A stretch of 64,000 bases of DNA, from the NCBI RefSeq assembly GCF_002252445.1, contig NZ_NNRJ01000018.1, forward strand, positions 62,001-126,000, written 5' to 3'. This document shows, in pieces, positions 20,680 through 35,827 of this stretch. The notes under the pieces were generated by a model. It was not told the origin of the DNA and did not search any database. It saw nothing but the letters and a program-made list of their open reading frames with translations. Source of the stretch: Brucella thiophenivorans. Lineage in GTDB: Bacteria > Pseudomonadota > Alphaproteobacteria > Rhizobiales > Rhizobiaceae. The number at the start of each line of letters is the position of its first letter. Position 1 is the stretch's first letter. The translations under genes were made by a program, and so were the position numbers.

Positions 20680-20692
20680 TATGCTTCGCTCC

Positions 20693-21463: not shown

Positions 21464-21591
21464 TCTGTCTATTCCCCGCGCTGTAACTTCTGTTACGTTT
21501 TATGATTGCGTGCGCTATTGCGGAATATTTGATACGCCGTATGATGCTTTGTCAAATATAATTTTGCGCGAATTTGAAAAGAGCTGCCCGA

Positions 21592-22419
21592 ATGGAAAAC
21601 GCCAGCATTGCGGAGTTGTTGAACGAACGGATTGATAGCATGCCTGCGGGTGAGCGTAGTGCAGCGCAGACACTGATCGCCAACTATCCCATGCTTGGTC
21701 TGAAGACTGTGGCTGAATTTTCAGCACAGGCAGGCGTAAGCTCACCGACCATTTTGCGATTTGTGAACAGGCTGGGGTTTCAGAGCTATTCCGAGTTTCA
21801 GGCACGTTTGCAGGATGAGCTCGCAGCGCAGTTGCAATCTCCGCATCATCGCAACGAACAGCCCGAGAAGGCACCGGATACGGCCTATCCTGCTGTCGAA
21901 TATACGCTTGATAATATTCGGGAAAGTTTCAGGCATTTAGGAGACAGGCAGTTGCAGCAAATCGTTGCGGCACTGAGCAATTCCAAGGGAAATGTCTATC
22001 TGATCGGCGGACGTTTTACCGATCCAATAGCGCAATATATGACCGCCCATATGTCAATTATCCGTCCCCATGTCTTTCATCTGGGAGGACAAGAAAGCAT
22101 GTGGCGTGACCGGCTGCTGGATATGGGAAAACGCGATGTCCTCGTCGTTTTCGACATTCGTCGTTATCAGCATAGTTTGTTGAGACTTGCTGAAAAAGCG
22201 CGTGGGCGAGGTGTTGAGGTCATTCTCATCACTGATCAGTGGCTTTCACCGATTGCACGCGTTGCGGGGCATGTGTTGGCTGGGCGCATCGCGGTGCCAT
22301 CTGCATGGGATTCCTCCGCATCAATTTTCGTTCTCGCTGAAACCATTATTCGCGAAATGACGCGTGCCTTGGAGCACGATAGTGCTGCGCGCATCGCTGA
22401 GCTTGAAGCGTTGCGATAA
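21592..22419 (+). CDS. MurR/RpiR family transcriptional regulator
   Basis: A 275-residue regulator: N-terminal RpiR helix-turn-helix (LIANYPMLGLKTVAEFSAQAGVSSPTILRFVNRLGFQSYSEFQARLQDEL, ~residues 28-77) and a C-terminal SIS sugar-phosphate-binding domain (NVYLIGGRFTDPIAQYMTAHM, RDVLVVFDIRRYQHSLLRLAEKARGRGVEVILITD). ATG 21592 is taken because the family helix begins soon after. Divergent from the amidohydrolase operon; likely its regulator. SIS domains in amine-operon regulators are also seen in other bacteria, so a sugar-phosphate effector is not certain. Confidence 0.83.
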   Translation: MENASIAELLNERIDSMPAGERSAAQTLIANYPMLGLKTVAEFSAQAGVSSPTILRFVNRLGFQSYSEFQARLQDELAAQLQSPHHRNEQPEKAPDTAYPAVEYTLDNIRESFRHLGDRQLQQIVAALSNSKGNVYLIGGRFTDPIAQYMTAHMSIIRPHVFHLGGQESMWRDRLLDMGKRDVLVVFDIRRYQHSLLRLAEKARGRGVEVILITDQWLSPIARVAGHVLAGRIAVPSAWDSSASIFVLAETIIREMTRALEHDSAARIAELEALR

Positions 22420-22502
22420 AGCATCTCCTATCAAAAAAGCAGTTCCGATTTACCGGCTGATGTTGTAGCCAAGGTCCGAAACGATGCTACGGATGGGAGG
22501 CT

Positions 22503-24134
22503 ATGGTGGACGTATTTCTCGGCGTTGATGTTGGTACAGGCAGTGCGCGTGCCGGGCTTTTTACACGTGATGGCGAATTGCTTGCGAGTGCGAAGCAAAA
22601 CATTCGCATGTGGAAACAAGGCTCAGATATTGTGGAGCAGTCCTCCAGTGATATTTGGCAGGCTGTTTGTACTGCCGTTAGGGAAGCGCTCAGCCTGGCA
22701 AATATTGCGCCGGAAGCGGTCAAAGGCATCGGCTTTGACGCCACCTGTTCGCTGGTCATTGTCGATAAAGACGGAAATCCACTGCCTGCAAGCCCGGAAG
22801 GGGATGCGGAACGCAATATTATTGTCTGGATGGATCACCGCGCACGCGAACAGGCCGAACGCATCAATGCAACATCCCATTTGGTGCTGAAATATGTTGG
22901 CGGTCGCATTTCACCCGAAATGGAAACGCCAAAGCTGCTTTGGCTAAAGGAAAACAATCCAAAAACGTTTAATGAAGCTGGCCTGTTTTTTGATCTGCCC
23001 GATTATCTGACCTATCGCGCGACGGGTAGTCTTTCGCGCTCGCTTTGCACTGTGGTCTGCAAATGGACCTATCTGGGACATGAAAAACGTTGGGATGAAA
23101 ATTATTTCCGCACAATTGGTCTCGGTGTTATGGCCGACGAAGGTTTTAAGCGTATCGGCACCGATATTGTCGATATTGCAACGCCTCTTGGGCAAGGCCT
23201 GACTGAGCAGGCAGGAAAAGAACTGGGACTTTTGCCGGGTACGGCGGTCGGTGCATCTCTGATTGACGCACATGCCGGTGGCGTGGGCACCATTGCTGGC
23301 AGTGTAAAGGGGGAGCGCGTGGTAGACATGCGTTCGCGTCTGGCGCTGATCATCGGAACCTCTGCCTGCACGATGAGCGTGACTGAAAAGCCAGCTTTCG
23401 TGGATGGGGTATGGGGACCATATTGGGGCGCGATGATGCCGGATCTCTGGCTTAACGAAGGTGGGCAGTCTGCCTTTGGGGCGGCGACTGATTATCTGGT
23501 TGGCATGCACCCTTATAAGGCGGAGGCGCAAAAGGAAGCTGATGCTGCCGGTCTGTCGCTGCTCGACTATCTTGAAAAGCTTGCCATAGAGTCCGTCCAC
23601 CAGCTTTCGGAAGTGGCACTTCTCGCAAAAGGTCTTCATGTGGTGCCGGAATTCTTGGGCAATCGTGCGCCGGATGCGGATCCCGATGCGACAGGCATAA
23701 TGGCGGGCATTAAGCTTGATGCATCGCGGGAAAATCTGGTAAGCCTGTTTGTCGCTGGCCTGTGCGGTTTGGCTTATGGCACAGCCGATATTCTCGATGC
23801 GCTGAAAGAAAAAGATATTCCAATCAAAACGATCATTGTCAGTGGTGGTGCTGCTCGAAGCCCGCTGATGCGCCGAATATTAGCCGATGCAACGGGGCTC
23901 GCGGTGGCGCTGCCATCATCAGCCGAGCCGGTTTTGCTTGGATCCAGCATCGTGGGTGCGAGCGCGTTTGAGAAAAGTGATCTCGCGCAGGTAGCCGCGA
24001 GCATGAGCGAAATTGCCGAAACGATTGAACCGCAGCAAGGACTTGCCAACGCGTTTCATGCGGCCAAGCGCGAAATCTATAAAGACCTGAAACGCTCGGA
24101 GCATGCTGCGCGTCGATTGATGCAAAAATTCTGA
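22503..24134 (+). CDS. FGGY-family carbohydrate kinase (pentulose/ribulokinase-like)
   Basis: A 543-residue sugar kinase with two actin-like domains. VFLGVDVGTGSARAGLF (phosphate-1), GIGFDATCSLVIVD, catalytic Asp in SLIDAHAGGVGTIAG, RSRLALIIGTSACTMSV, and TIIVSGGAARSPLMRRILADATG (adenosine motif). The WMDHRAREQAERIN and FLGNRAPDADPDATG segments are those of the ribulokinase-like YDR109c/FGGY group. GGGAGG precedes ATG 22503. No pathway partners are adjacent apart from the RpiR gene 83 nt upstream, so substrate (a pentulose, perhaps from polyol oxidation) is not clear. Its stop abuts that of the convergent photolyase with no spacing. Confidence 0.85.
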   Translation: MVDVFLGVDVGTGSARAGLFTRDGELLASAKQNIRMWKQGSDIVEQSSSDIWQAVCTAVREALSLANIAPEAVKGIGFDATCSLVIVDKDGNPLPASPEGDAERNIIVWMDHRAREQAERINATSHLVLKYVGGRISPEMETPKLLWLKENNPKTFNEAGLFFDLPDYLTYRATGSLSRSLCTVVCKWTYLGHEKRWDENYFRTIGLGVMADEGFKRIGTDIVDIATPLGQGLTEQAGKELGLLPGTAVGASLIDAHAGGVGTIAGSVKGERVVDMRSRLALIIGTSACTMSVTEKPAFVDGVWGPYWGAMMPDLWLNEGGQSAFGAATDYLVGMHPYKAEAQKEADAAGLSLLDYLEKLAIESVHQLSEVALLAKGLHVVPEFLGNRAPDADPDATGIMAGIKLDASRENLVSLFVAGLCGLAYGTADILDALKEKDIPIKTIIVSGGAARSPLMRRILADATGLAVALPSSAEPVLLGSSIVGASAFEKSDLAQVAASMSEIAETIEPQQGLANAFHAAKREIYKDLKRSEHAARRLMQKF

Positions 24135-25523
24135 TTACTTCCCTGCCTTGGGTGCCTTGAAAACGGGAAGCGGGTAGGTTTTGCCAAGAACAACGCCTGC
24201 TTTTCGCAGAACGTCTTCGGGCGCCGCATAAGGTTTGTGAATCCATCTATCCGGTAGGTCGGCAATTTCCGGCACCCATTCGCGCACATAGGCGCCGCCA
24301 GTATCAAATTTGTCGCCTTGCAGGACAGGATTGAAAACGCGGAAATAGGGTGCTGCGTCCATGCCGCAGCCTGCCACCCATTGCCAGCTTCCCGGATTGC
24401 TGGCGATGTCGGCATCGACCAGCGTATCCCAGAACCATTTTTCGCCTTCACGCCAGTCGATCTGCATGTTCTTGCTCAAGACAGAGGCAACCAGCATGCG
24501 CACGCGATTATGCATCCAGCCTGTCGCCCAGAGCTGACGCATGCCGGCGTCAATCATCGGAACGCCGGTATTGCCCTTTTTCCAGGCCTCAAACGCCACT
24601 GGATTGTGGTTCCACTCAATATCGGCGAGCGTGTTGCGCATGTCGTTTTCGGCAATGTCCGGGCGATAATAGAGTTGGTGATAGTGAAAATCGCGCCAGA
24701 TAAGTTCGGACAGAAATTTCTCGCCCCCCGTTTGCGTGTCGGGATGCTCATCCATCAGCGACAGCGTTGCATGCCATGCCTGTCGCGGGCTGATTTCACC
24801 GAAGCGTAAGTGTGGCGAGAGCTTGGAAGTGCCTCCCACATCGGGGCGGTCGCGGTCACTTGCATAATTTTGGATGGTCTCGTCAAAGAAATGATAGAGT
24901 TGGTCGACAGCAGCCTGTTCGCCAATCTCCCACAGACCGTTCATTTTCTTTGACCAGAAGAGTTGTATCTGAGTTGCTGTCTTTGACTTGTGTTGCAGCT
25001 TAGAAGGTGCAGCTTTCCAATCAGATGATGTAAGTGGACGGTTCACCCCTTGCTGGCGGAGCGTTTTGGCGTAAGGTGTAAACACCTGATAAGGACCGCC
25101 ACCGCCTGTTTTGATCTCCCATGGCTCTGACAGGAGATTGCCTGCAAAAGATCCAACATTCAGTCCTTTGTCTTTCAGGGCCGCTTTGACCTGTGCGTCG
25201 ACGTCGCGTTCTTGCGGGGCATAGCGCCGGTTCCAGAACACGGCATCAAAGCCGTTTTCCTTGATCAAATTTTCGATGATATTGAGTGCGTCACCCTTCA
25301 TCACGATCAATTCTACATTGCGTGCGTTGAGGCTTTTCTCAAGCGAAGTCAGGCTCTGCTCCAGCCACCAGAGCACAGCACTGCCGGGGGAGCGCAAATG
25401 CGGATTGGTTTCGTGCACATAGAGCGCGGTGATGCTACCGCCAAGCTTGACAGCAGCATCCAGAGCCGGGTTGTCGGCAAGGCGCAGATCGTTACGCAAC
25501 CAGACAAGCGCATTTGCAGTCAT
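24135..25523 (-). CDS. phr: Deoxyribodipyrimidine photolyase (class I CPD type)
   Basis: A 462-residue light-dependent DNA-repair flavoprotein. N-terminal antenna domain WLRNDLRLADNPAL...ALYVHETNPHL; FAD-binding domain with LSPHLRFGEISPRQAW, FLSELIWRDFHYHQLYYRP, GNTGVPMIDAGMRQLWATGWMHNRVRMLVASVLSKNMQIDWREGEKWFWDTLVDADIASNPGSWQWVAGCG. These are the conserved FAD and Trp-triad segments. Last gene of an operon with DUF1295 and a CFA-synthase-like gene; photolyase is a classic member of the RpoE/ChrR singlet-oxygen regulon, encoded 8 kb away here. Confidence 0.93.
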   Translation of the reverse strand: MTANALVWLRNDLRLADNPALDAAVKLGGSITALYVHETNPHLRSPGSAVLWWLEQSLTSLEKSLNARNVELIVMKGDALNIIENLIKENGFDAVFWNRRYAPQERDVDAQVKAALKDKGLNVGSFAGNLLSEPWEIKTGGGGPYQVFTPYAKTLRQQGVNRPLTSSDWKAAPSKLQHKSKTATQIQLFWSKKMNGLWEIGEQAAVDQLYHFFDETIQNYASDRDRPDVGGTSKLSPHLRFGEISPRQAWHATLSLMDEHPDTQTGGEKFLSELIWRDFHYHQLYYRPDIAENDMRNTLADIEWNHNPVAFEAWKKGNTGVPMIDAGMRQLWATGWMHNRVRMLVASVLSKNMQIDWREGEKWFWDTLVDADIASNPGSWQWVAGCGMDAAPYFRVFNPVLQGDKFDTGGAYVREWVPEIADLPDRWIHKPYAAPEDVLRKAGVVLGKTYPLPVFKAPKAGK

Positions 25524-25533
25524 TGAATAATCC

Positions 25534-26562
25534 TTATTTGACGGGCTTTAGAAGATAATGCCCGACGCCCCAGACATTTCCGTTGTCGTGACCGAAAAGA
25601 CCGGCAGTCGCTAAGAAAAACAGCCGCCAGCGACGTTCCCACAGGCCAGCGTCCTGCGCATAGACCTGTTGCAGGATTGGTCTGATCTGATCAATCGATT
25701 TATCGAAGTTGCTTAGCCAATCCAAAGCCGTTTGCTGATAATGCGTGCCGGACCAGCGCCAATCCTGCTCAACTGTGAATAGTTCACCAAAGCGGTGCGG
25801 AAGATCGAAAGCTGGCATGATGCCGCCCGTGAAAAAATGATGGGCAATCCAGTCTGCCGGATTGTCGTGATTGAACCGGTAAGAGCGGTCGCGATGGGTG
25901 AAAACATGGATGAATAATTTTCCCTCTGCAGTTAGCCAGCCGCGCACGCGCTCAAACAGCGATTGCCAGTTAGACATATGTTCAAACATTTCAACCGAGA
26001 CCACGCGATCAAAGCGCTGATCAATTGAAAAGTCGTTCATGTCTGCAGTGATTACGCTTAGATTGCCAAGGCCGCGCATGGCTGCCTGTGCCTCGATATA
26101 GGCGCGTTGCGGCGTAGAGTTTGACACCGATATAATGTTGGCGTTTGGAAAATTTTCAGCCAGATAAAGCGATAGCGAACCCCATCCGCAGCCCAGTTCC
26201 AGAATGTTCATGCCATCGTGAATGTCGGCGTGGCTCAACGTCTCGCGCAGCGCGAATGCTTCTGCTTCGCCAAGTGTTGTGTTTTTATCCGGATAATAGC
26301 AGCAGGAATATTTGCGTTGTGGTCCCAGTGCCAATTCGAAAAATTGCGGAGGGAGTTCATAATGCTGGCGATTGGCTTCATCGGTGTGGGTAGCAACTGG
26401 GAAGTTCTTCATTGTCTGGAGGAAATCAAGTTCCGTTTGTTCCGGCGTTCCGGCCAGCCTGCGCTTTGTACGACCGCAAAGATAATCGATGCCTGCAAGC
26501 GTGATCGTATCGCTCAAAGGAACGCGTTCCGCTGCATTGATTGCATAGGCCAGCATATTCAT
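25534..26562 (-). CDS. Cyclopropane-fatty-acyl-phospholipid synthase-like methyltransferase (short form)
   Basis: A 342-residue SAM-dependent methyltransferase of the CFA/mycolate family. SAM loop MNILELGCGWGSLSLYLAENFPNANIISVSNS (~residues 120-150), DRVVSVEMFEHMSNW, and FFTGGIMPAFDLPH. HYELPPQFFELALGPQRKYSCCYY is the entry segment. It lacks the N-terminal domain of classical Cfa and is distinct from the second copy at 29671. GGAGCC and ATG 26562 lie two bases after the DUF1295 stop. In Rhodobacter and Rhodopseudomonas such enzymes methylate unsaturated chains of phospholipids in response to singlet oxygen, giving furan fatty acids; a similar role here is inference. Confidence 0.87.
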   Translation of the reverse strand: MNMLAYAINAAERVPLSDTITLAGIDYLCGRTKRRLAGTPEQTELDFLQTMKNFPVATHTDEANRQHYELPPQFFELALGPQRKYSCCYYPDKNTTLGEAEAFALRETLSHADIHDGMNILELGCGWGSLSLYLAENFPNANIISVSNSTPQRAYIEAQAAMRGLGNLSVITADMNDFSIDQRFDRVVSVEMFEHMSNWQSLFERVRGWLTAEGKLFIHVFTHRDRSYRFNHDNPADWIAHHFFTGGIMPAFDLPHRFGELFTVEQDWRWSGTHYQQTALDWLSNFDKSIDQIRPILQQVYAQDAGLWERRWRLFFLATAGLFGHDNGNVWGVGHYLLKPVK

Positions 26563-26564
26563 AT

Positions 26565-27350
26565 TCAGGCTCCTGACTTTTTGGGACCGGGAAAAAACGC
26601 ATTAACGCGGCGTTGAAGGGCGCGGAATTTTTCACCGCGCGATTTGAGCATGTGTTCTTCGAGAGGGGGGATGCCCGATACGTGCACCAGCAGCCAATAC
26701 ATCTGGATGGGGGCGAGCAGCGACACCCAGCTCCAGGGCGATGCATTAATTGCCATCAACGGCCATGCGCACCAGAAAAGCCATTCAAAGAAATAGTTAG
26801 GATGCCGCGAATAGGCCCAAAGGCCGGACTCGCAAATTTCAGTTTTTGCCGCTGGTGTTTTGCGAAATTTTGCAAGCTGCGCGTCAGACAATGCTTCGCC
26901 CGCAATAGCAATCGCGATAATTGCAACAGCGATAACGTCCCAGACATTGGGGAAGTCAGGACGGCTTACGGCTGCAAGATAGACTGAAAGCACAAGAATA
27001 AACGCCGCCAAGGCCTGTATCTGTAAAAACCAGAACAAGCGCTTTGAGGCGTTGTCGCCCCATTCTTTCATAAGCTTTGTATAACGCGGGTCTTCGCCGT
27101 GAGACAGGCTTCGCTGTGCGATATGAAGCCCCAAACGCAGTGACCAAACAAGGATCAGGATGAGGATTGCTGAGCGGCGTTGCCATGGCGTATCGGCCCA
27201 AAGCACAGCTATGAGCGAACCTAATCCAACAGAAATTGACCAAATCGCATCGATCCAGCCACTTTTGCCGGTCTTTCTTTCCAAGCCCCACGCAAAACTC
27301 ATGATGAGCGACAGGCTGATGGCAACAATGAGAAGAAGATCGGGTTGCAT
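26565..27350 (-). CDS. DUF1295 family membrane protein (steroid-5-alpha-reductase/isoprenylcysteine-methyltransferase fold)
   Basis: A 261-residue polytopic protein with about six to seven membrane segments (LLLIVAISLSLIMSFAWGL, SAILILILVWSLRLGLHIA, FLQIQALAAFILVLSVYLAA, VIAVAIIAIAIAGEALSD, FFEWLFWCAWPLMAINASPWSWVSLL). The soluble signature ICESGLWAYSRHPNYFFEW is the DUF1295/ICMT-like NADPH- or SAM-binding loop, followed by GIPPLEEHMLKSRG. First gene of the operon with the CFA-like enzyme and photolyase. May reduce or modify lipid chains; function unproven. Confidence 0.85.
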   Translation of the reverse strand: MQPDLLLIVAISLSLIMSFAWGLERKTGKSGWIDAIWSISVGLGSLIAVLWADTPWQRRSAILILILVWSLRLGLHIAQRSLSHGEDPRYTKLMKEWGDNASKRLFWFLQIQALAAFILVLSVYLAAVSRPDFPNVWDVIAVAIIAIAIAGEALSDAQLAKFRKTPAAKTEICESGLWAYSRHPNYFFEWLFWCAWPLMAINASPWSWVSLLAPIQMYWLLVHVSGIPPLEEHMLKSRGEKFRALQRRVNAFFPGPKKSGA

Positions 27351-27456
27351 TTGCGGGCCTTTGGTCGAGATTGCGTTTTATACAATGCATACGTATGGCC
27401 TTGGCTTTTGGTTTCCTAAGCCGCTCAAAAAAATCAAAAAAAGTTACAGTCTCCAT

Positions 27457-27486
27457 TGAACCAATCAGCATCTTAAAACGTAAGAT
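27457..27486 (+). promoter_or_regulatory. Predicted RpoE (ECF11) promoter for the amine-oxidase/DUF1365/CFA operon
   Basis: TGAACC (27457-27462), 18-nt spacer, TAAGAT (27481-27486). The ECF sigma-E consensus in related bacteria is TGATCC-N18-TAAGA (established for Rhodobacter); one mismatch in the -35. TSS would fall near 27493, making the ATG at 27514 the likely start of the first gene. Confidence 0.6.
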
Positions 27487-27513
27487 GAAGAAATGCGGCA
27501 CAGTGAGGGACTT

Positions 27514-28869
27514 ATGGATATTACAAACCATCCGAGCGGCGCTAAACGCCTCAAGCTCGCCATTATCGGGAGTGGGATTTCCGGCCTGTCTGCTGCGTGG
27601 CTTTTATCGCAACGCCATGATGTTACTATGTTTGAAGCCTCAAACCGCATCGGCGGACATAGCAACACGGTCGAGTTCGCAAGCAGTGGCGGGCCCGTCG
27701 CCGTCGATACAGGCTTCATTGTTTATAATGAAGTGACTTATCCCAATCTCACGTCGCTTTTTAAGCTACTCGACGTACCCACTTCTTCGTCAAATATGTC
27801 CTTTGCCGTGTCGCTCGGTAATGGCGCTTTTGAGTATTCGGGCGGTACAGGTCTTGGCCTTTTCGCACAGCGTTCAAATCTGGTTAGTCCGCGTTTCTGG
27901 GCGATGATCCGTGATTTACTGCGCTTTTATCGTAATGCTCCCAAGGATTTTAGCATGATGGGTGGCATTTCGCTGGATGACTATCTCGCGCGAAATGACT
28001 ATGGCCGGGCTTTTCGCGAGGACCATCTTTATCCGATGGCAGCGGCAATATGGTCGACACCAGCCATGGAAGTCGGTCGCTATCCAGCCGCAAGTTTTGT
28101 CCGATTTTGCTCTAATCATGGTTTGCTTGCTTTGCGTGATCGTCCGATCTGGCGAACGGTAAAAGGCGGCAGTCGTGAATATGTTGAGCGTATCACCAGG
28201 CCTTATGCGGATAATATTCGGCTATCGACACCGATAAAGTCGGTGAGACGGTTGGAAAACGCTGTTGAACTGATGGATGCGAGTGGCATTGCGTATTCAT
28301 TCGACGATGTGGTGATTGCTACCCATGCCGATCAGGCTTTACGCATTCTTGCCGACCCAAGTCATGAGGAAAGCCGCATTCTTAGTTCGTTTCAATATGC
28401 GCGCAATGAGGCGGTGCTTCATACGGATACTTCGCTGATGCCAAAAAGACGTGCTGCGTGGTCAAGCTGGAATTATCTAACCAATGCGGGTTCGGGGCCT
28501 TCGCAGCCATCAATAACCTATTGGATGAACCGCTTACAGCCATTGGGAACCGCGCCCGATACATTTGTAACGCTCAATCCATGTCGTGCGCCGCGTGAAG
28601 ATTTAGTCATCCGCCGACAGACCTATGAGCACCCTATTTTCGATCTGTCGACGGATCGTGCACAGAAGGAAATCTGGTCGTTGCAGGGGCAGCGCAGAAC
28701 ATGGTTTTGCGGCGCGCATTTTGGTTCTGGCTTTCATGAAGATGGTTTGCAGGCAGGTCTTGCGGTGGCCGAAGACCTTGGCGGCGTGCGTCGTCCATGG
28801 CAGGTCGAGCACGAAAGTGCGCGGATTGTTCGCCAGCCTGTGCCGATCCGGGAAAGGGCGCTGGCATGA
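27514..28869 (+). CDS. FAD-dependent amine-oxidase-like oxidoreductase
   Basis: A 451-residue flavoprotein. The dinucleotide-binding motif AIIGSGISGLSAAWLLSQRHDVTMFEASNRIGGHSNTVEF is near the N-terminus and the C-terminal FAD segment is WFCGAHFGSGFHEDGLQAGLAVAEDLGG. VAVDTGFIVYNEVTYPNL is typical of the subgroup next to DUF1365 and CFA-synthase genes. In Rhodobacter the homologous gene lies in the RpoE regulon and participates in making furan fatty acids from methylated phospholipid chains (UfaD/UfaO group); exact step here unknown. Start at 27514 (GAGGGA at 27505) lies after the predicted TSS. Overlaps DUF1365 by ATGA. Confidence 0.87.
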   Translation: MDITNHPSGAKRLKLAIIGSGISGLSAAWLLSQRHDVTMFEASNRIGGHSNTVEFASSGGPVAVDTGFIVYNEVTYPNLTSLFKLLDVPTSSSNMSFAVSLGNGAFEYSGGTGLGLFAQRSNLVSPRFWAMIRDLLRFYRNAPKDFSMMGGISLDDYLARNDYGRAFREDHLYPMAAAIWSTPAMEVGRYPAASFVRFCSNHGLLALRDRPIWRTVKGGSREYVERITRPYADNIRLSTPIKSVRRLENAVELMDASGIAYSFDDVVIATHADQALRILADPSHEESRILSSFQYARNEAVLHTDTSLMPKRRAAWSSWNYLTNAGSGPSQPSITYWMNRLQPLGTAPDTFVTLNPCRAPREDLVIRRQTYEHPIFDLSTDRAQKEIWSLQGQRRTWFCGAHFGSGFHEDGLQAGLAVAEDLGGVRRPWQVEHESARIVRQPVPIRERALA

Positions 28870-29684
28870 GCGAGATTTTTAAATCCGCCCTTTTTCCGGG
28901 TCATGTGACCCATGCACGTTCGCGGCCAAAGGTGCATAAGCTTGCTTATAAAATCTATTCGCTGCTGCTTGATCTTGACGAATTGCAGGCCCTTGACAGC
29001 AAATTAAAGCTGTTTTCTGTCAATCGCTTAAATCTGTTTTCTTTCCGTGAAAAAGACCGCGGCGACGGATCAACAACACCTTTGCGCGCGCAGATTGAAG
29101 ATGCAATGCGCATCACAGGTATAGAGCCGGATGGTGGTGCGATCCGCCTTCTGACCATGCCGCGGATTCTTGGCTGGTCATTTAATCCGTTGAGCATCTT
29201 CTTTTGCTACAATCGTGAAGATCGCCTCACAGCCATTTTATGGGAAGTCGATAACACGTTCAAACAGCGCCATGGCTACATGATCCCGGTGGAAGCTGAT
29301 GAGAGCGGACGCATCGTGCAGACCTGTGACAAGGCATTCTATGTATCGCCCTTCATGGATATGAAGCTGCGCTATGAGTTTGAGGTCCAGCCACCGGCAG
29401 ACAAGCTCGCAGTCAGGATCAATACGTTTGACGATGAAGGTTTGGTGCTCACCGCGCGGCATCTGGCGCACCGGGTTGAATTGAGCGACGCGGCCTTGCT
29501 GCGTGCCTTCTTTGCCATTCCCTTTTTAACATTGCGGGTTGTCGGTGGCATCCATTGGGAAGCGGTGAAAATTTTGCTGAAGGGCATCAAACTTCGCAAG
29601 CGTCCAAGCCCGCCTCAGGCCGCAATATCCCATATCCATAGTGAAATTTCTGGCAGAGGAACAGGGTCGCATGAGCCAGTTTGA
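28866..29684 (+). CDS. DUF1365 family protein
   Basis: A 272-residue protein of unknown enzymology. Family signatures are FPGHVTHARSRPKVHKLAYKIYSLLLDLDEL, the LLTMPRILGWSFNPLSIFFCYN block, LWEVDNTFKQRHGYMIP, and DKAFYVSPFMDMKLRYEF. These proteins are nearly always encoded beside an amine-oxidase-like flavoprotein and a CFA-type methyltransferase, as here. In Rhodobacter the corresponding locus is needed for furan fatty acid formation and RpoE activation. The start overlaps the upstream stop, and the 3' end overlaps the next gene by 14 nt, so all three are coupled. Confidence 0.85.
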   Translation: MSEIFKSALFPGHVTHARSRPKVHKLAYKIYSLLLDLDELQALDSKLKLFSVNRLNLFSFREKDRGDGSTTPLRAQIEDAMRITGIEPDGGAIRLLTMPRILGWSFNPLSIFFCYNREDRLTAILWEVDNTFKQRHGYMIPVEADESGRIVQTCDKAFYVSPFMDMKLRYEFEVQPPADKLAVRINTFDDEGLVLTARHLAHRVELSDAALLRAFFAIPFLTLRVVGGIHWEAVKILLKGIKLRKRPSPPQAAISHIHSEISGRGTGSHEPV

Positions 29685-30903
29685 TGAAACTTCCCACTTT
29701 CCTGCCTCTGCGTCGCTGGGGCGTTCTGTGTTGAGTCCTTCCGTGCGCTTGTTAAAGCGTCTGCTCAATCAGGTCCGATATGGCCGTCTGACACTTGTTT
29801 TGCCGTCAGGACAGTCGGTTGTTGCACAAGGTGCGCAGCCGGGACCAGAAGCGAAAATTATTATCAAAAGCTGGCGCTGCCTGCGCCGTCTGTTAGCGGG
29901 TGGCGATATTGGTTTTGCGCAAGCCTATATAGAAGGTGACTGGACATCGCCCGATCTGACCAGTGTCATCCGCTTTGCAGCGCGCAATCGTGACACGCTT
30001 CTTTCGACGTTTCGTGGATCACCTTTAATGCGTCTGGTGCATCGTGTCGGCCATTTGCTTAATGCCAATACCCGACGCGGCAGCCGTAAGAATATCGAAG
30101 CGCATTATGATCTCGGCAATGGTTTTTACAGCCAGTGGCTTGATCCATCGATGCTTTATTCGTCGGCCATTTTTAAGGAGACGACGGATAGTCTTGAGGC
30201 TGCGCAGGAGTATAAGTTGAAGTGCATTGCACAAAAGCTCTCTCTGCAGGGTGGTGAAAAAATCCTTGAGATTGGCTGTGGCTGGGGCGCTCTGGCAACC
30301 TATCTGGCCGATTATGGGGATGCACATGTAACCGGCATTACTTTGTCACCATCCCAGCTCGCATGGGGAAAGAATGTCGTTCAGAAGGCGGGACACAACG
30401 ATGCCGTTGATCTGCGCTTGCAAGATTATCGCGATGTCAAAGGGCAGTTCGACCGGATCGTATCGATCGAAATGTTTGAGGCGGTAGGAGAAGCCTATTG
30501 GCCGGAATATTTTGCAACGCTCAAGCATTGTCTGAAGCCCGGCGGTAAGGCTGTTCTGCAGATCATCTCAATTGAAGATGCACGCTATGAAAACTATCGT
30601 CGCAAGGCCGATTTTATACAGAAATTTATCTTTCCCGGCGGATTCCTGCCATCCGATAAGGTTCTAGAGCGCGATCTCGCCAAAGCCGGTCTCGTTCTGA
30701 AAGAGATCAACCATTTCGGCCATTCGTATGCGCTTACGCTGGCCGAGTGGCGGCAGCGGTTCAACGCCAATTGGCCAGAGATCGAAAAACTCGGTTTTGA
30801 TGATCGGTTCCGCAGACTTTGGGAATATTATCTTTGTTACTGCGAGGGCGGCTTTGAAGAAGGCGCCATCAATGTCGGGCTTTATACGATCGAGCATGCT
30901 TGA
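29671..30903 (+). CDS. cfa: Cyclopropane-fatty-acyl-phospholipid synthase family methyltransferase (full-length form)
   Basis: A 410-residue SAM-dependent enzyme that methylates double bonds of phospholipid acyl chains at the membrane. N-terminal lid domain (GRLTLVLPSGQSVVAQG...GDIGFAQAYIEGDW) precedes the catalytic domain: HYDLGNGFYSQWLDPSMLYSSAIF, EIGCGWGALATYLADYGDAHVTGITLS, RIVSIEMFEAVGEAYWPEYF, FIQKFIFPGGFLP and the C-terminal YYLCYCEGGFEEGAINVGLYT. ATG 29671 with AGAGGA at 29655 is preferred to the upstream GTG 29641. Could be the UfaM/Cfa-type enzyme of the singlet-oxygen regulon. Followed immediately by DUF2147. Confidence 0.9.
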   Translation: MSQFDETSHFPASASLGRSVLSPSVRLLKRLLNQVRYGRLTLVLPSGQSVVAQGAQPGPEAKIIIKSWRCLRRLLAGGDIGFAQAYIEGDWTSPDLTSVIRFAARNRDTLLSTFRGSPLMRLVHRVGHLLNANTRRGSRKNIEAHYDLGNGFYSQWLDPSMLYSSAIFKETTDSLEAAQEYKLKCIAQKLSLQGGEKILEIGCGWGALATYLADYGDAHVTGITLSPSQLAWGKNVVQKAGHNDAVDLRLQDYRDVKGQFDRIVSIEMFEAVGEAYWPEYFATLKHCLKPGGKAVLQIISIEDARYENYRRKADFIQKFIFPGGFLPSDKVLERDLAKAGLVLKEINHFGHSYALTLAEWRQRFNANWPEIEKLGFDDRFRRLWEYYLCYCEGGFEEGAINVGLYTIEHA

Positions 30904-30935
30904 TGAAAATGAATCCACGGATGCAGGAGGCACCG

Positions 30936-31304
30936 ATGAAATGGATACTCATAATAGGTAGCATCGCCATGTTAACACCATCAATTGCGCAGGCTGCAGA
31001 TATAGGCGGCAACTGGGCGCGCGGCGATGGCAAGGCGAGGGTCAAGATCGCTGACTGCGGCAATGATATTTGTGCCACCAACACATGGATCAAGCCGGGA
31101 ACGCCGAAAGAAAAGACCGGCGACCGTCTGGTTATGACGATCAACCAGACTGCCAGCGGCCAATATTCCGGCACGGCTTTCGATCCACAGCGCAATCTTA
31201 CTTATAAGCTCAGCGTGAAGGTGGACGGCGATAAAATGACGACCAATGGATGCGTTCTGGCAGGTCTTTTGTGCCGGGATGTGAGCTGGTCTCGTATAAA
31301 ATAA
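30936..31304 (+). CDS. DUF2147 family secreted protein
   Basis: A 122-residue exported protein. Signal peptide ILIIGSIAMLTPSIAQA then mature domain beginning ADIGGNWARGDGKARVKIADCGNDICATNTWIKPGT; the family pattern GTAFDPQRNLTYKLSVKVDGDKMTTNGCVLAGLLCRD has two Cys pairs that could form disulfides. GGAGG at 30926-30930 fixes ATG 30936. Function unknown; it follows the CFA gene in the same operon, so a periplasmic role during membrane stress is possible. Confidence 0.82.
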   Translation: MKWILIIGSIAMLTPSIAQAADIGGNWARGDGKARVKIADCGNDICATNTWIKPGTPKEKTGDRLVMTINQTASGQYSGTAFDPQRNLTYKLSVKVDGDKMTTNGCVLAGLLCRDVSWSRIK

Positions 31305-31319
31305 GAGAGTGGTGTTTTG

Positions 31320-31724
31320 ATGAAATCTTACATTGTAGCCTATGTGGTAACGGCCATCGCTTTTCTGGCCATTGATTCAGTGTGGCTGACGAACATGGCC
31401 AATGTGTTCTATCGCCCTGTGATGGGCGATATGCTTGCGCCAAGTTTCCGGCTTGCTCCAGCGGTTGTATTCTACGTGATTTTTGTGTTCGGGCTGGTGT
31501 TCTTTGCCGTGCGACCGGGACTTCTTGCAGGGAGCGGCGCAGTTACGCTGCTGAATGGTGCACTTCTGGGATTTGTCGCCTATGCGACTTATGATCTGAC
31601 AAATCAGGCCACCTTGAAAAACTGGTCATGGACTCTGACCATTGCAGATCTGATCTGGGGTACTGTGCTGTCTGCCGTCTCCGCCTATATTGGCTATTGG
31701 GTAACGTCGCGTTTGGTAGGCTGA
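31320..31724 (+). CDS. DUF2177 family membrane protein
   Basis: A 134-residue integral membrane protein with four helices (IVAYVVTAIAFLAIDSVWL, APAVVFYVIFVFGLVFFAV, ALLGFVAYATYDLTNQATL, IADLIWGTVLSAVSAYIGYWV). FVAYATYDLTNQATLKNW is the family signature. Function unknown. Fifteen nt after DUF2147 and on the same strand, so part of the oxidative-stress operon. A hairpin with T-run at 31761-31785 may end the transcript. Confidence 0.8.
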   Translation: MKSYIVAYVVTAIAFLAIDSVWLTNMANVFYRPVMGDMLAPSFRLAPAVVFYVIFVFGLVFFAVRPGLLAGSGAVTLLNGALLGFVAYATYDLTNQATLKNWSWTLTIADLIWGTVLSAVSAYIGYWVTSRLVG

Positions 31725-31728
31725 GCAT

Positions 31729-31841
31729 TTCCAGCAAAAGTGCGTAGCGTCTACGCAGGGAAATCAGTTCACTGGACTGATTTTTAATCCTGCTACGATG
31801 CATAGGATAATGCGTAAAAACAGAGAAATAGAGCCGTTCCA
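31729..31841 (+). repeat. Dispersed palindromic repeat with embedded terminator-like hairpin
   Basis: Begins GAGCATTTCCAGCAAAAGTGCG and ends AATGCGTAAAAACAGAGAA. The end arms match, in opposite orientation, the sequence at 32362-32413. Inside, AAATCAGT (31761-31768) and ACTGATTT (31776-31783) form an 8-bp stem followed by TTTTT, which could act as a terminator between DUF2177 and TspO. Confidence 0.55.
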
Positions 31842-31870
31842 ATTGTCACGGTTCTAGCCGGAGTAATAGT

Positions 31871-32323
31871 ATGCAGAAATTGGGTCTTCTGGCAGTCTTT
31901 GCCTTCGTGATCATCACGATTGGTATGGTGATGGGTATCAGCTTTCCGCCCGGCGAGTGGTATGCGTCGTTGCAGAAGCCTTGGTTCACGCCACCAAATG
32001 CTGCATTCGGGCCGGTCTGGACGATACTCTATGTGTTCATAGCGATTGCAGGCTGGCGCACATTTCTTAGCGATAATGGTTGGAAGCGTCGTGGACCTTG
32101 GCTTGGTCAGATGGTGCTGAATTTCATTTGGTCACCGATTTTCTTTGGCGCACATATGACTGTTCTCGGACTTGTTGTCATCATTGGTGCGTGGCTTTGT
32201 GTGCTTCTGTTTATCGTTCGTGCATGGCAACCAGATCGGATATCTGCACTGCTTTTTGTGCCCTATCTGGCATGGCTATCGGTGGCAACTGCATTGAATA
32301 CGGCGATTATAGTTCTCAATTGA
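31871..32323 (+). CDS. tspO: TspO/MBR family membrane protein
   Basis: A 150-residue five-helix membrane protein. Family features: FPPGEWYASLQKPWFTPPNAAFGPVWTILYVFIAIAGW (helix 1-2 region with the WFTPPNAAFGPVWTILY signature), LGQMVLNFIWSPIFFGAHM and LLFVPYLAWLSVATALN. TspO binds porphyrins and is linked to tetrapyrrole, light and oxidative stress responses in alphaproteobacteria (established for Rhodobacter). Its position next to the RpoE/ChrR island agrees. Ends at a strong bidirectional terminator. Confidence 0.93.
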   Translation: MQKLGLLAVFAFVIITIGMVMGISFPPGEWYASLQKPWFTPPNAAFGPVWTILYVFIAIAGWRTFLSDNGWKRRGPWLGQMVLNFIWSPIFFGAHMTVLGLVVIIGAWLCVLLFIVRAWQPDRISALLFVPYLAWLSVATALNTAIIVLN

Positions 32324-32325
32324 AT

Positions 32326-32359
32326 AAGTAAAAGGCGGCAAATATGCCGCCTTTTACTT
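32326..32359. terminator. Strong bidirectional terminator between tspO and chrR
   Basis: Perfect 15-bp stem AAGTAAAAGGCGGCA / TGCCGCCTTTTACTT with AATA loop. A and T flanks give U-rich tails on both strands, separating the convergent tspO and chrR transcripts. Confidence 0.88.
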
Positions 32360-32361
32360 AT

Positions 32362-32413
32362 GTTTTTACGCATTATCCTTCGCAAAACCTCGTCGCACTT
32401 TTGTTCTAAATGC
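32362..32413 (-). repeat. Dispersed repeat, copy overlapping the 3' end of chrR
   Basis: On the minus strand it reads GCATTTAGAACAAAAGTGCG then GAGGTTTTGCGAAGGATAATG and CGTAAAAACA, the same arms as at 31729-31841. The last codons and stop of chrR lie inside it. Confidence 0.55.
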
Positions 32414-33059
32414 CGATTAGTGGCTGAACCATACGCATCAGCCAGCCCTGGAACTTCAGCGGTGCGTCTGTCACGGCAAGGCATATGCAATCTCCGCCGC
32501 GTGACGCAATCGGCTGATGCACAAGATCGGCATCGGCTTCTTCAATATCACCGCGTGCAAAAACGCCTGTTTCATCCTCAAAACTGCCGCAGAGCACCAG
32601 TGTGAGTTCGCGTCCGCCATGGCCATGTTCAGGCACAGGCTTTCCGGCCGGAATTTTGAGCAGCCTGACATTGGTTTCGCCATCGTTGATTGCAATCGGA
32701 ACTTGATAGGCACCGCGGCCAAGCGCTTTCCATTTCAAATCCGGCAGATCTCCGCCCACATAGGAGCGTAGCGGTTCAGGAAGAACTGCAGGCGCTGCAG
32801 TGGGTGCTGGACGTTGCAGCGAGGTCTTCGGTTGAGTTTCGAGCCTGCTTTTTAAGGCGCCCCATGCATCAAGTTGAATTTCTGCCGGTGCGACTTTCTC
32901 CAGAAGCTCACCACCAATATGCTCAAACTGCTTAAGACGCGAGCGACAGGCCGGGCAAAGTGCGAGATGTGTTGCTACTGCAATGCTCCAGCCTTCGGCC
33001 AATGTGCCGGCTGCGTAGCTTGAGAGAAGTTCGTCGCTCAGATGGTGTTGAATATTCAT
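32406..33059 (-). CDS. chrR: ChrR zinc anti-sigma factor of RpoE
   Basis: A 217-residue cytoplasmic anti-sigma factor that holds RpoE inactive and releases it under singlet oxygen. N-terminal ASD domain: HHLSDELLSSYAAGTLAEGWSIAVATHLALCPACRSRL has His6, His31, Cys35 and Cys38, the zinc ligands known from Rhodobacter ChrR. C-terminal cupin: PVPEHGHGGRELTLVLCGSFED and DADLVHQPIASRGGDC, with the second metal-site His/Glu residues. Start codon overlaps the rpoE stop by one base (both at 33059), the usual sigma/anti-sigma coupling. The C-terminus runs into a dispersed repeat. Confidence 0.93.
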   Translation of the reverse strand: MNIQHHLSDELLSSYAAGTLAEGWSIAVATHLALCPACRSRLKQFEHIGGELLEKVAPAEIQLDAWGALKSRLETQPKTSLQRPAPTAAPAVLPEPLRSYVGGDLPDLKWKALGRGAYQVPIAINDGETNVRLLKIPAGKPVPEHGHGGRELTLVLCGSFEDETGVFARGDIEEADADLVHQPIASRGGDCICLAVTDAPLKFQGWLMRMVQPLIGI

Positions 33060-33634
33060 CAGTACGCTCCCGAATTGTCGAGCGCAGAACGCAATTTATT
33101 GAATGCCAGCCGCAGACGGGATTTCACGGTTCCAAGCGGCAGATTTAGTTTCTTTGCAATTGCACTATGCGTGCTGTCTTCAAAATAGGCGAGTTCAAGC
33201 AATGTGGATTGTTCTTTCGGAAGGCTTGCCATCGCAGCGCGCAATTGGCTGGCGGATTGCCGCTCTGCAATCTGAATATCGGCGGGCCGTTCTTCATCGG
33301 GCACAAAGGCCGGGTCGGTTGGGTCAAATTGCGGACGTCGCGCACGCCGGACGGCATCAATGCGCTGATTGCGTGCAATCGTGAAAATCCAAGTCGATAA
33401 GGCTCCTTTTGAAAAATCAAATTGGTCTGCCTTATTCCAGACCATAATCATGGTTTCCTGCATTAATTCTTCCGCTGTTTGCGTATCGGCAGACAGTTTC
33501 GCCATATAGGCTTTCACGCGCGGTGCGAAATGTTTGAAAATCGCCTCGAATGCGTCCATGTCGCGTCGCGAACTGACTGCCAGCATCAATTGTTCCAGAG
33601 AAGGCTGATTTTCAGAAGCAGTCCGCTCGGTCAT
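33059..33634 (-). CDS. rpoE: ECF sigma factor RpoE (ECF11 group)
   Basis: A 191-residue sigma factor. Region 2: DMDAFEAIFKHFAPRVKAYMAKLSADTQTAEELMQETMIMVWNKADQFDFSKGALSTWIFTIARNQRIDAVRRARR; region 4: LPKEQSTLLELAYFEDSTHSAIAKKLNLPLGTVKSRLRLAFNKLRSALD. The ATG at 33634 is chosen because a promoter-like element at 33745-33774 would put the transcript start near 33738 and because the region-2 fold starts just after. The pair with ChrR is the singlet-oxygen sensing system of Rhodobacter; targets here likely include photolyase, CFA enzymes and the flavoprotein operon. Confidence 0.92.
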   Translation of the reverse strand: MTERTASENQPSLEQLMLAVSSRRDMDAFEAIFKHFAPRVKAYMAKLSADTQTAEELMQETMIMVWNKADQFDFSKGALSTWIFTIARNQRIDAVRRARRPQFDPTDPAFVPDEERPADIQIAERQSASQLRAAMASLPKEQSTLLELAYFEDSTHSAIAKKLNLPLGTVKSRLRLAFNKLRSALDNSGAY

Positions 33635-33744: not shown

Positions 33745-33774
33745 CTGTTACGAAGGCAAAATGAAACTGGATCA
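33745..33774 (-). promoter_or_regulatory. Predicted autoregulatory RpoE promoter
   Basis: On the minus strand TGATCC (33774-33769), 18-nt spacer, TAACAG (33750-33745). It matches the -35 exactly and the -10 loosely of the RpoE consensus TGATCC-N18-TAAGA, and lies between the GGDEF-EAL stop and the rpoE start. Confidence 0.6.
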
Positions 33775-33793: not shown

Positions 33794-35632
33794 TTAGTTT
33801 TTTGCGGTGTAGGTCTTTATCACCGGTGTCTGCATGCGCTGTTCATACTGCCCGCAGTCCCGCAAAAGCATAGTGGCTTTTTCATAATCCACGGCTTTCG
33901 AGAAAGCATAGCCTTGGCCGAGCTGACACCCCATCTTCTGGAGCGTTTCAGCCAGTTCAAGCGTCTCAACGCCTTCTGCGACAAGTTTGATCTTCAGGTC
34001 ACCGGCGATCTGCACAATGCCTTTGACGATCGCGACACTTGGATCACCGGGGGCTAGGCGGCATACAAAGGACCGGTCGATTTTGATAATGTCGACCGGA
34101 ACAGTCAGAAGATGCGCCAGTGCTGCAAAGCCGGTGCCAAAATCGTCAAGCGCAATACGCACACCGAGCAGGCGCAGGTTTCTGATGCCTGATGCAACGA
34201 CATCGTCGCGCTGCCCGATATAGGCGTTTTCCGTCACTTCTATGATAAGATGTGTGAGCGGCACATCATATCGAGCGAATGTCTTTGAAACAAATGCCGC
34301 CAGATCGCCGACGTAGAAGTCGGCGGCTGTCACGTTAACGCCAACATGCTGCACCGGCAGGCCAAGATCAAGCCAGCGTCGAATGTCCTGTGCGACGATT
34401 GAAAGCATATATTGGGTAATTTCGGATGCGATATGAACATCCGAAAAGGATTCTTGAAACATGGCGGCGGAAAGTATTTCGCCCGATGGCGTGGTCATAC
34501 GGCTCAACGCTTCAAAGCCGATGATTTCCCTTGTATCAAGCCGCAAGAGGGGCTGATAATGCGCGGCGATACGCTTTTGTTCGAGTGCTTCGCGGACTTC
34601 CTTGATCGAATTGCGCCGATGGACGATGCGCGTTCCGACATTGGCTTGATAAAGCACGAAACTCCCACGCGCATTCTCTTTGGCATGATAAAGCGCGAAA
34701 TCCGCGTTGCGACGTACGGTTTGCGGTTGCGTGTCGAGCGCGGCAAGGACTGCCCCGCCGATTGTCACGCGTGGTAAGATTGTCTGGCCGTCATAATGGA
34801 CAGGCGATGACAGCGCCTTGAAAACCAGATCGGCTGCATGATATGGGTCATAGAGCGCATCATGGTTCTGGATAATCACTGTAAATTCATCGCCACCAGT
34901 GCGAAATGTTATATCCGGTGAAAGACTATCTGAAATACGCGTGGCAATCGTTTGAATGAGGACATCCCCAACTTCATGCCCGAATGTATCATTGGTAACT
35001 TTGAGATTGTCCATATCAATAACGAACAATGCCCAGCTCCCCGGCAATTCACAACGCAGTTGTGATAGTGCGTCGTCAAAGGCTGCGCGATTGGCAAGAC
35101 CAGTCAGAACATCGACTGTCGCTCGCCTCTCATAGTTGAGGATTCGCACTTCGCGCACCATTGCAAGCTTACAAAGCTGTGCGCCTATATCGATAATTTC
35201 ACGTTCAGATGCTGTTGGAGTGTGTTTCTTGTCGAAATAGACCGCCAGAGCGCCGATCGCGTCGCCTGTGTCGTTGAGGATTGGCACAGAACTGCATGCA
35301 AGCAAACCCAGGGGCAGGGCAAGTTGCTTGTAAGATGCCCATTTGGGATCATTCTCAATATCTGAAACAACGACCGGAATTTTGTTATAAATTGCACTGC
35401 CGCAAGAGCCGACCTCGGGGCCGACGACAATTCCATTGAAAGCGTAGCCATAACTATCGGGCAGCTTTGGAGCGGCGAGCATATTAAGCATGCCCGCCTG
35501 ATCGACGGAGCAAACCATCGTGCGGGCATCAATGATCAGTTCTTCAATTTCAACGCACAATTGTTCGAGCGTTTGCTTCAGAGGCTGGCCTCTGGCTATC
35601 AACTCAAGAACAGTGTTCTGAAATTTGAGCAC
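33794..35632 (-). CDS. GAF-GGDEF-EAL cyclic-di-GMP signalling protein
   Basis: A 612-residue three-domain cytoplasmic protein. GAF sensor at ~1-160 (GIVVGPEVGSCGSAIYNKIPVVVSDIENDPKW, typical of GAF before GGDEF); GGDEF at ~170-330 with DVLTGLANRAAF and intact FRTGGDEFTVI; EAL at ~345-595 with GFEALSRM, NVTAADF, IIEVTENAY, ALDDFGTGF, IIKIDRSF and VAEGVET. All expected catalytic residues of both domains are present, so it could both make and break c-di-GMP. No membrane segment. Transcribed toward rpoE but stops before its promoter; the pilus operon lies upstream on the same strand, a likely target of c-di-GMP control. Confidence 0.9.
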   Translation of the reverse strand: MLKFQNTVLELIARGQPLKQTLEQLCVEIEELIIDARTMVCSVDQAGMLNMLAAPKLPDSYGYAFNGIVVGPEVGSCGSAIYNKIPVVVSDIENDPKWASYKQLALPLGLLACSSVPILNDTGDAIGALAVYFDKKHTPTASEREIIDIGAQLCKLAMVREVRILNYERRATVDVLTGLANRAAFDDALSQLRCELPGSWALFVIDMDNLKVTNDTFGHEVGDVLIQTIATRISDSLSPDITFRTGGDEFTVIIQNHDALYDPYHAADLVFKALSSPVHYDGQTILPRVTIGGAVLAALDTQPQTVRRNADFALYHAKENARGSFVLYQANVGTRIVHRRNSIKEVREALEQKRIAAHYQPLLRLDTREIIGFEALSRMTTPSGEILSAAMFQESFSDVHIASEITQYMLSIVAQDIRRWLDLGLPVQHVGVNVTAADFYVGDLAAFVSKTFARYDVPLTHLIIEVTENAYIGQRDDVVASGIRNLRLLGVRIALDDFGTGFAALAHLLTVPVDIIKIDRSFVCRLAPGDPSVAIVKGIVQIAGDLKIKLVAEGVETLELAETLQKMGCQLGQGYAFSKAVDYEKATMLLRDCGQYEQRMQTPVIKTYTAKN

Positions 35633-35796: not shown

Positions 35797-35827
35797 AAAA
35801 AAGTGAGAATGGAAGCGGCGCTTTCTC
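35797..35827 (-). terminator. Probable terminator of the pilus operon
   Basis: On the minus strand, TGAGAA... TTCTCA arms around AAGC-GCC-GCTT, then ACTTTTTTAATTTT. The hairpin overlaps the stop of the tip gene. The stem is imperfect, so moderate confidence. Confidence 0.5.

What the first reader, a model, noticed from the sequence alone, without database searches (positions are those of the whole stretch)
24135..33634. Photo-oxidative stress island with a putative furan or modified fatty-acid pathway
Within 9.5 kb lie RpoE, ChrR, photolyase, two different CFA-type methyltransferases, a flavin amine-oxidase-like protein, DUF1365, DUF1295, DUF2147, DUF2177 and TspO. In Rhodobacter, homologues of the CFA/flavoprotein/DUF1365 genes are in the RpoE regulon and have been linked to furan fatty acids and ChrR release. 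Two methyltransferases fit either mono- and dimethyl furan products, or one cyclopropane and one methyl-branched product. DUF1295 and DUF2177 have no role assigned. For a non-photosynthetic organism this is a noteworthy complete set.
Basis: partly seen in the sequence, partly recalled or inferred. Interest (0 to 1): 0.72.

Follow-up and report, generated by a model that had tools for sequence, protein, structure and literature searches.

The report
Furan-lipid stress operon with new reductase
This stretch carries the known bacterial genes for making furan fatty acids, membrane lipids that mop up singlet oxygen, under a light-stress switch, and comparison shows that two unnamed genes in it, DUF1295 and DUF2177, travel with that pathway in distant bacteria.

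Summary
In detail: all eleven genes are present, in three units: DUF1295-fufM-phr (-), ufaD-ufaO-ufaM-DUF2147-DUF2177-tspO (+) and rpoE-chrR (-). One promoter-like motif occurs three times in 64 kb, only at their three promoters. The furan reading is supported: gene order as in Rhodopseudomonas palustris, a UfaM-type enzyme without the cyclopropane-synthase histidine, and a FufM-class second methyltransferase. Mono- and dimethyl-furan fatty acids are expected, not a cyclopropane. This is known in kind, and non-photosynthetic hosts are usual.

New: a distinct DUF1295 clade lies within 3.8 kb of ufaO in 30 of 33 genomes of an order sample, against 0 of 9 for other DUF1295 proteins, and accompanies FufM in 64 of 80 loci from several phyla. 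DUF2177 has the motif upstream in 10 of 43 loci, 0.25 expected. Chlamydomonas singlet-oxygen data list DUF1365, DUF1295, DUF2177 and two CFA genes together. The DUF1295 model matches a steroid 5-alpha-reductase best, though ICMT methyltransferases share the fold. I propose an NADPH reductase of oxidised furan lipids, perhaps remaking the furan. Gene linkage is shown; the reaction is inference.

The parts
24135..25523 (-). phr, photolyase, last gene of the DUF1295-fufM-phr unit
   Evidence: Pfam DNA_photolyase and FAD_binding_7. In only 3 of 80 FufM loci, so peripheral.
25534..26562 (-). fufM-type SAM methyltransferase, predicted to methylate the monomethyl furan to the dimethyl furan
   Evidence: Discrete family (376 bits or more against under 130 for other CFA types); 57% identical to the R. 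palustris JSC-3b copy, itself 27.8% identical to that strain's UfaM.
26565..27350 (-). DUF1295, furan-cluster clade; helical membrane protein of the steroid 5-alpha-reductase / ICMT fold; proposed reductase of oxidised furan lipid
27390..27414 (-). ECF11-type promoter-like site for DUF1295-fufM-phr
   Evidence: RAWCCA-N15-CGTA; seen by eye in the same place in same-genus relatives.
27458..27482 (+). ECF11-type promoter-like site for ufaD-ufaO-ufaM-DUF2147-DUF2177-tspO
   Evidence: Same motif.
27514..28869 (+). ufaD, FAD-dependent fatty acid desaturase type (reading frame from 27493)
   Evidence: Pfam Amino_oxidase and NAD_binding_8; in the 80 FufM loci ufaD and ufaO occur in the same 57.
28866..29684 (+). 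ufaO, DUF1365, furan-forming oxygenase type (reading frame from 28797)
   Evidence: PF07103 256.6 bits.
29671..30903 (+). ufaM, vaccenate methylase type (reading frame from 29641)
   Evidence: 50% identical to R. palustris JSC-3b UfaM; Gln in place of the CFA active-site His, as in 39 of 39 relatives.
30936..31304 (+). DUF2147 (reading frame from 30900)
   Evidence: PF09917 50.9 bits; in 16 of 80 FufM loci.
31317..31724 (+). DUF2177, small membrane protein, probable ECF11 regulon member
   Evidence: PF09945 149 bits; motif upstream in 10 of 43 non-genus loci against 0.25 expected; in 44 of 80 FufM loci.
31871..32323 (+). tspO
   Evidence: PF03073 128 bits; in only 1 of 80 FufM loci, the same-genus one.
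32406..33059 (-). chrR, anti-sigma factor
   Evidence: TIGR02451 222 bits over its cut-off; Pfam Cupin_7 over, zf-HC2 just under its cut-off.
33059..33634 (-). rpoE, ECF sigma factor (frame open to 33775)
   Evidence: TIGR02937 90.7 bits over its cut-off of 42.9; motif directly upstream.
33749..33773 (-). ECF11-type promoter-like site for rpoE-chrR (autoregulation)
   Evidence: Same motif; GAWCC-N15-17-CGTA lies upstream of rpoE in 16 of 28 non-genus loci against 0.05 expected.

Best explanation
The island is a self-regulated furan fatty acid module. ChrR holds the ECF11 sigma factor; singlet oxygen releases it; it transcribes its own operon and the two divergent lipid operons from three similar promoters. 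UfaM methylates a membrane 18:1 chain, UfaD adds a second double bond, UfaO inserts oxygen from O2 to form the furan, and FufM adds a second methyl group. DUF1295 and DUF2177 are further conserved members of this module. DUF1295 is most likely a membrane NADPH-dependent ene-reductase that acts after the furan exists, best guess on the ene-dione (dioxoene) left when the furan is oxidised. Shown by computation: gene content, active-site signatures, promoter motif, linkage, fold. Inferred from published relatives: the enzyme steps and ChrR release. My own inference: the reaction of DUF1295 (about 0.3 for the ene-dione substrate, about 0.7 for a reductase of any kind). No role is proposed for DUF2177.
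Confidence: 0.82

Rival explanations
1. DUF1295 reduces a broad range of unsaturated carbonyl lipids made by singlet oxygen, as general detoxification, and is only co-regulated with the furan genes.
For: Reductase fold. DUF1295 proteins of other clades occur away from furan genes.
Against: A separate clade with its own residues (F188 in 98% against G in 23 of 23 others) is tied to ufaO (30 of 33 against 0 of 9), which suggests a furan-specific substrate.
Confidence: 0.3
2. DUF1295 is an ICMT-like methyltransferase acting on a carboxyl or other group of the lipid or of a protein.
Against: ICMT hits lie below the curated cut-offs (20.9 of 24 and 19.6 of 160 bits) and the ICMT alignments cover only model residues 53-256; the steroid and sterol reductases align over nearly the whole length, and a steroid reductase gives the best sequence match.
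Confidence: 0.2
3. DUF1295 makes a different end product, for example by reducing the UfaM product to a saturated methyl-branched chain, so that the cluster makes branched as well as furan lipids.
For: Reductase fold; the UfaM product carries a double bond.
Against: In the steroid reductase mechanism read here (PMC7591894 passages) the double bond is activated by a carbonyl, which that chain lacks near its double bond; the linkage measured is to ufaO. Linkage to ufaM was not measured in that sample.
Confidence: 0.12
4. One island methyltransferase is an ordinary cyclopropane synthase.
For: Both hit Pfam CMAS; FufM keeps the His at the H266 position in 78 of 80.
Against: Neither reaches the NCBIfam cyclopropane cut-offs. 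UfaM lacks the CFA His (Q in 39 of 39). FufM has F at the I268 position in 77 of 80 and lies nearer to plant N-methyltransferases than to CFA. Another CFA-type gene lies elsewhere in the genome.
Confidence: 0.05

Closest known systems
R. sphaeroides / R. palustris furan fatty acid pathway UfaM-UfaD-UfaO and FufM (Lemke 2020, PMC7380195)
   Same: Same enzyme families; ufaD-ufaO-ufaM in the R. palustris order; chrR-linked.
   Different: Here FufM, DUF1295, DUF2177, phr and rpoE-chrR sit in one island; the sections read name no DUF1295 or DUF2177. In R. palustris JSC-3b fufM lies away from ufaDOM and next to a DUF1295.
ECF11 RpoE-ChrR core regulon (PMC6852236 and PMC5507510, passages read)
   Same: rpoE-chrR, furan genes and photolyase among the core targets.
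   Different: DUF1295, FufM and DUF2177 are not named in the passages read.
Chlamydomonas SAK1-dependent singlet oxygen genes (Wakao 2014, PMC4067076)
   Same: CFA1, CFA2, DUF1365, DUF1295 and DUF2177 co-induced.
   Different: Eukaryote, separate genes, other regulator; sequences not compared here. A 2021 review (PMC8491031, passages) already links the algal CFA genes to furan work, without naming DUF1295 or DUF2177 in those passages.
Steroid 5-alpha-reductases PbSRD5A (7c83) and SRD5A2 (7bw1)
   Same: Fold over nearly the whole length; PbSRD5A is the best sequence-profile match.
   Different: 13-17% identity; substrate and activity of DUF1295 unknown.

Membership tests
Furan fatty acid pathway (UfaM, UfaD, UfaO) | Contiguous homologues of the three enzymes | tested here: met
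Furan fatty acid pathway (UfaM, UfaD, UfaO) | UfaM distinct from CFA synthases in the active site | tested here: met
   Q at the H266 position in 39 of 39 UfaM-type; H in 22 of 24 generic CFA-type. The role of H266 is recalled.
Furan fatty acid pathway (UfaM, UfaD, UfaO) | Makes 9M5- or 9D5-type furan fatty acid | not testable with these tools
   Needs lipid analysis
FufM | Same class as the R. palustris FufM | tested here: met
   57% identical to the only FufM-class gene found in the R. palustris JSC-3b scaffold; RPA0924 itself was not at hand
ECF11 RpoE-ChrR | ChrR family anti-sigma gene next to the sigma gene | tested here: met
   TIGR02451 222 bits, cut-off 124.5
ECF11 RpoE-ChrR | Shared promoter motif at rpoE and target operons | tested here: met
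   not compared with a published ECF11 matrix
ECF11 RpoE-ChrR | Released by singlet oxygen | not testable with these tools
   Needs expression data
Steroid 5-alpha-reductase family (PF02544) for DUF1295 | Over the curated family cut-off | tested here: met
   32.7 bits against 22.6, but PF06966 scores 238
Steroid 5-alpha-reductase family (PF02544) for DUF1295 | Fold match over the whole length | tested here: met
Steroid 5-alpha-reductase family (PF02544) for DUF1295 | Catalytic E57 and Y91 and cofactor residues | tested here: inconclusive
   D34, Y90, D156 and N185 are near-invariant; D156 and N185 line up with an Asp and an Asn of SRD5A2; E57 and Y91 were not mapped
ICMT for DUF1295 | Over curated ICMT cut-offs | tested here: not met
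   20.9 of 24, 19.6 of 160
Cyclopropane fatty acid synthase | Over NCBIfam CFA cut-offs | tested here: not met
   for both enzymes

The most novel reading that the evidence does not exclude
The furan-clade DUF1295 protein closes a recycling loop. Singlet oxygen opens the furan lipid to an ene-dione; DUF1295 reduces the conjugated double bond with NADPH; the resulting 1,4-diketone loses water and closes back to the furan, so one lipid chain can quench many singlet oxygen molecules. The same loop operates in green algae and perhaps plants with homologues of the same families.
Probability: 0.2. Interest if true: 0.85.

Novelty: new variant of a known kind. Interest (0 to 1): 0.6.

Why it matters
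Furan fatty acids are antioxidants found in microbes, plants and fish, and in Rhodobacter they take part in the response to singlet oxygen, yet I found nothing on an enzyme that deals with them once oxidised (searches, one open-access library). This work gives two gene families without a function, DUF1295 and DUF2177, a place in that module. It ties a bacterial operon to the unexplained DUF genes of a well-studied algal stress response, and it makes a specific reaction testable in laboratory strains.

Tried and rejected
Cyclopropane reading: rejected. DUF1295 as a mere FufM accessory: rejected, because 12 of 33 order genomes with furan-clade DUF1295 have UfaO but no FufM and three same-genus loci lack FufM and keep DUF1295 (no FufM elsewhere in those genomes). 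DUF1295 as part of 9D5 synthesis: disfavoured, because FufM in R. sphaeroides gave 9D5, with the caveat that R. sphaeroides was not checked for DUF1295. Four other genome hits of the promoter pattern gave no convincing target. No defence-system match for DUF1295, DUF2177 or DUF2147. TspO and phr: too rarely linked to count as core. The careful DUF1295 tree did not finish; the quick tree is used. Its context labels rest on unequal flanks: the class-survey loci hold only 1.5 kb each side, and some rows are one gene met twice.

Rows dropped before counts: four partial DUF1295 matches (with them kept, p=6e-6 instead of 2e-6); L142 and upstream windows shorter than 350 bases, whose expectation comes from plain letter shuffles; matches under 80 bits or of 200 residues or fewer; nine sequences of middle score. 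Gene presence rests on bit thresholds that I set. In one search, 54 of 64 DUF1295 sequences of those loci were aligned with the window's, 37 of 44 DUF2177 sequences.

On checking, the total for 'a reductase of any kind' was set to about 0.7, the sum of the reductase readings (0.3 + 0.3 + 0.12); it had been written as 0.65. No other odds were changed.

Papers: PMC7380195 abstract, Results and Discussion; PMC4067076 passages and the first part of section 8 with Table 5; PMC6852236, PMC10940516, PMC12712439, PMC11313482, PMC8491031, PMC3420878, PMC5507510, PMC12595405 and PMC7591894 passages only; others search listings only. That no link of DUF1295 or DUF2177 to furan lipids is in print rests on searches of one open-access library; of the 14 papers that hold the word DUF1295 only PMC4067076 was opened.
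Full report
WHAT IS THERE. Three transcription units are suggested: DUF1295-fufM-phr leftwards, ufaD-ufaO-ufaM-DUF2147-DUF2177-tspO rightwards from the same intergenic space, and rpoE-chrR leftwards. The block is kept in order in six same-genus loci (fufM missing in three, phr not found in one) and in part in a locus of another family of the order. The nearest named genome among the relatives found is filed as Brucella rhizosphaerae.

CONTROL. A motif that I saw at the rpoE promoter, and then at both divergent promoters, RAWCCA-N15-CGTA, occurs three times in 64 kb, only at these three sites, with 0.26 expected and 0 of 100 shuffles reaching three. The pattern was made from these sites, so this is partly circular. 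The independent test is in 79 non-genus loci, with a related pattern, GAWCC-N15-17-CGTA, against letter shuffles: rpoE 16 of 28 (0.05 expected), ufaD 15 of 56 (0.5), DUF2177 10 of 43 (0.25), DUF1295 4 of 62 (0.65), ufaO 4 of 56 (0.6), FufM 2 of 78 (0.6), ufaM 1 of 37 (0.25), chrR 0 of 28 (0.15).

PATHWAY. Lemke 2020 showed UfaM, UfaD and UfaO to suffice for 9M5-FuFA, and FufM to give 9D5-FuFA from it. R. palustris JSC-3b DNA has ufaD-ufaO-ufaM together, and elsewhere a FufM-class gene next to a DUF1295. The window's UfaM is 50% identical to that strain's UfaM, and its second methyltransferase 57% identical to that strain's FufM-class protein. At the position of the E. coli CFA active-site histidine, 39 of 39 UfaM-type proteins have glutamine, while 22 of 24 generic CFA-type proteins keep histidine (the function of that residue is recalled). 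FufM-class proteins keep the histidine (78 of 80) but have Phe at a neighbouring position (77 of 80).

THE TWO DUFS. In a class sample of 192 genomes the FufM family (376 bits or more; the next match has 129) is in 7, DUF1295 in 29, DUF1365 in 100, DUF2177 in 20 and ChrR in 81. Leaving the own genome out, 6 of 6 FufM genomes have DUF1295 against 24 of 191 (p=2e-6), 22 of 24 DUF1295 genomes have UfaO against 99 of 191 (p=1e-5), and 17 of 19 DUF2177 genomes have UfaO (p=4e-4). These counts take all clades of DUF1295 together, and in one FufM genome (G071) DUF1295 lies on another contig and outside the furan clade. Among UfaO-positive genomes alone, FufM with DUF1295 still holds (p=7e-5); DUF2177 with FufM (p=0.06), DUF2177 with DUF1295 (p=0.14) and DUF1295 with ChrR (p=0.37) do not. 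In 80 FufM loci of named genomes, DUF1295 is within reach in 64 (61 within 300 bp), ufaD and ufaO in 57 each, DUF2177 in 44, ufaM in 38, chrR in 30. Ten of the loci are titled as MAGs from outside the Alphaproteobacteria (Planctomycetota, Verrucomicrobiota, Acidobacteriota, Nitrospirota, gamma- or betaproteobacteria), and eight of these ten have DUF1295. Sixteen of the 80 show no DUF1295; nine of the sixteen look like Caulobacteraceae, and four, all Bradyrhizobium, show none of DUF1295, ufaD, ufaO, ufaM, DUF2177 or chrR.

These loci were chosen by FufM. A test chosen by DUF1295 itself used 249 genomes of the order. Furan-clade DUF1295 (303 bits or more; the next is 230) is in 34. Leaving out the own genome, 30 of 33 lie within 3.8 kb of ufaO, and the other three lie on a different contig from ufaO. 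The nine other DUF1295 proteins are never near it (0 of 9; p=5e-7). FufM is present in 21 of the 33 and absent in 12; it is absent in all 9 of the others. Within the genus, all 7 genomes with UfaO have the full-length DUF1295; the 5 without UfaO have no full-length one, though two show weak partial matches and two are incomplete assemblies (85% and 69%). In a quick tree, 73 of 74 rows of one clade (support 100) are in furan context, the last being the same gene seen with a short flank; a few furan-context DUF1295 lie outside it, so the association may have arisen more than once. The clade carries Phe where all 23 others have Gly (HPNYFF against HPNYFG), with Gly31, Trp97, Gly151 and Cys173 as further marks.

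MECHANISM. Furan fatty acids are oxidised to dioxoenes (PMC12595405 passage), which are carbonyl-activated alkenes. A membrane NADPH ene-reductase linked to the furan-forming step, but apparently not needed for making the furans in R. sphaeroides (presence of DUF1295 there not tested), fits best as an enzyme for the oxidised lipid. Reduction to a 1,4-diketone followed by loss of water would remake the furan. This last step is my own idea and is untested.

CROSS-KINGDOM PARALLEL. Table 5 of Wakao 2014 lists 104 SAK1-dependent singlet-oxygen genes of Chlamydomonas; CFA1, CFA2, DUF1365, DUF2177 and DUF1295 are ranks 2, 11, 18, 22 and 25 by induction. A 2021 review (passages) links the CFA genes to furan fatty acids; DUF1295 and DUF2177 were not linked in any passage I read or search I made. 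Arabidopsis homologues of UfaM/UfaD, UfaO and FufM sit on lipid droplets (passages).

VERDICT. The core is known in kind. The new content is the place of DUF1295 and DUF2177 in it and a testable reaction for DUF1295.

Noticed in passing
window 31725-31870: About 130 bases more lie between DUF2177 and tspO here than in the six same-genus loci, with stretches that look palindromic by eye; perhaps a small repeat element.
   Followed up: no
window 33794-35632 (-): A GAF-GGDEF-EAL protein lies directly upstream of rpoE on the same strand.
   Followed up: no
window 35826-39229 (-): Spore coat U-domain protein and outer membrane usher, probably part of a chaperone-usher pilus.
   Followed up: no
window 19309-24134: Glutamine synthetase, N-formylglutamate amidohydrolase, RpiR regulator and FGGY kinase beside the island.
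   Followed up: no
window 25534-26562: The FufM family profile matches plant coclaurine and pavine N-methyltransferases (best E 5e-88) far better than cyclopropane synthases (5e-41): plant alkaloid N-methyltransferases and furan lipid methylases may share a root.
   Followed up: partly
L149: In Shinella sp. H4-D48 the cluster lies on a record titled as plasmid p1, so the module can be mobile.
   Followed up: no
L010, L013, L014: Three same-genus genomes lack fufM at an otherwise conserved island and show none elsewhere: probably loss, predicting monomethyl furans only.
   Followed up: yes
L147, L154, L182, L193, L195, L197, L203, L204, L207: Caulobacteraceae-like loci have DUF2177 next to fufM, eight of the nine with ufaD-ufaO, but no DUF1295 in the stretch held.
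   Followed up: no
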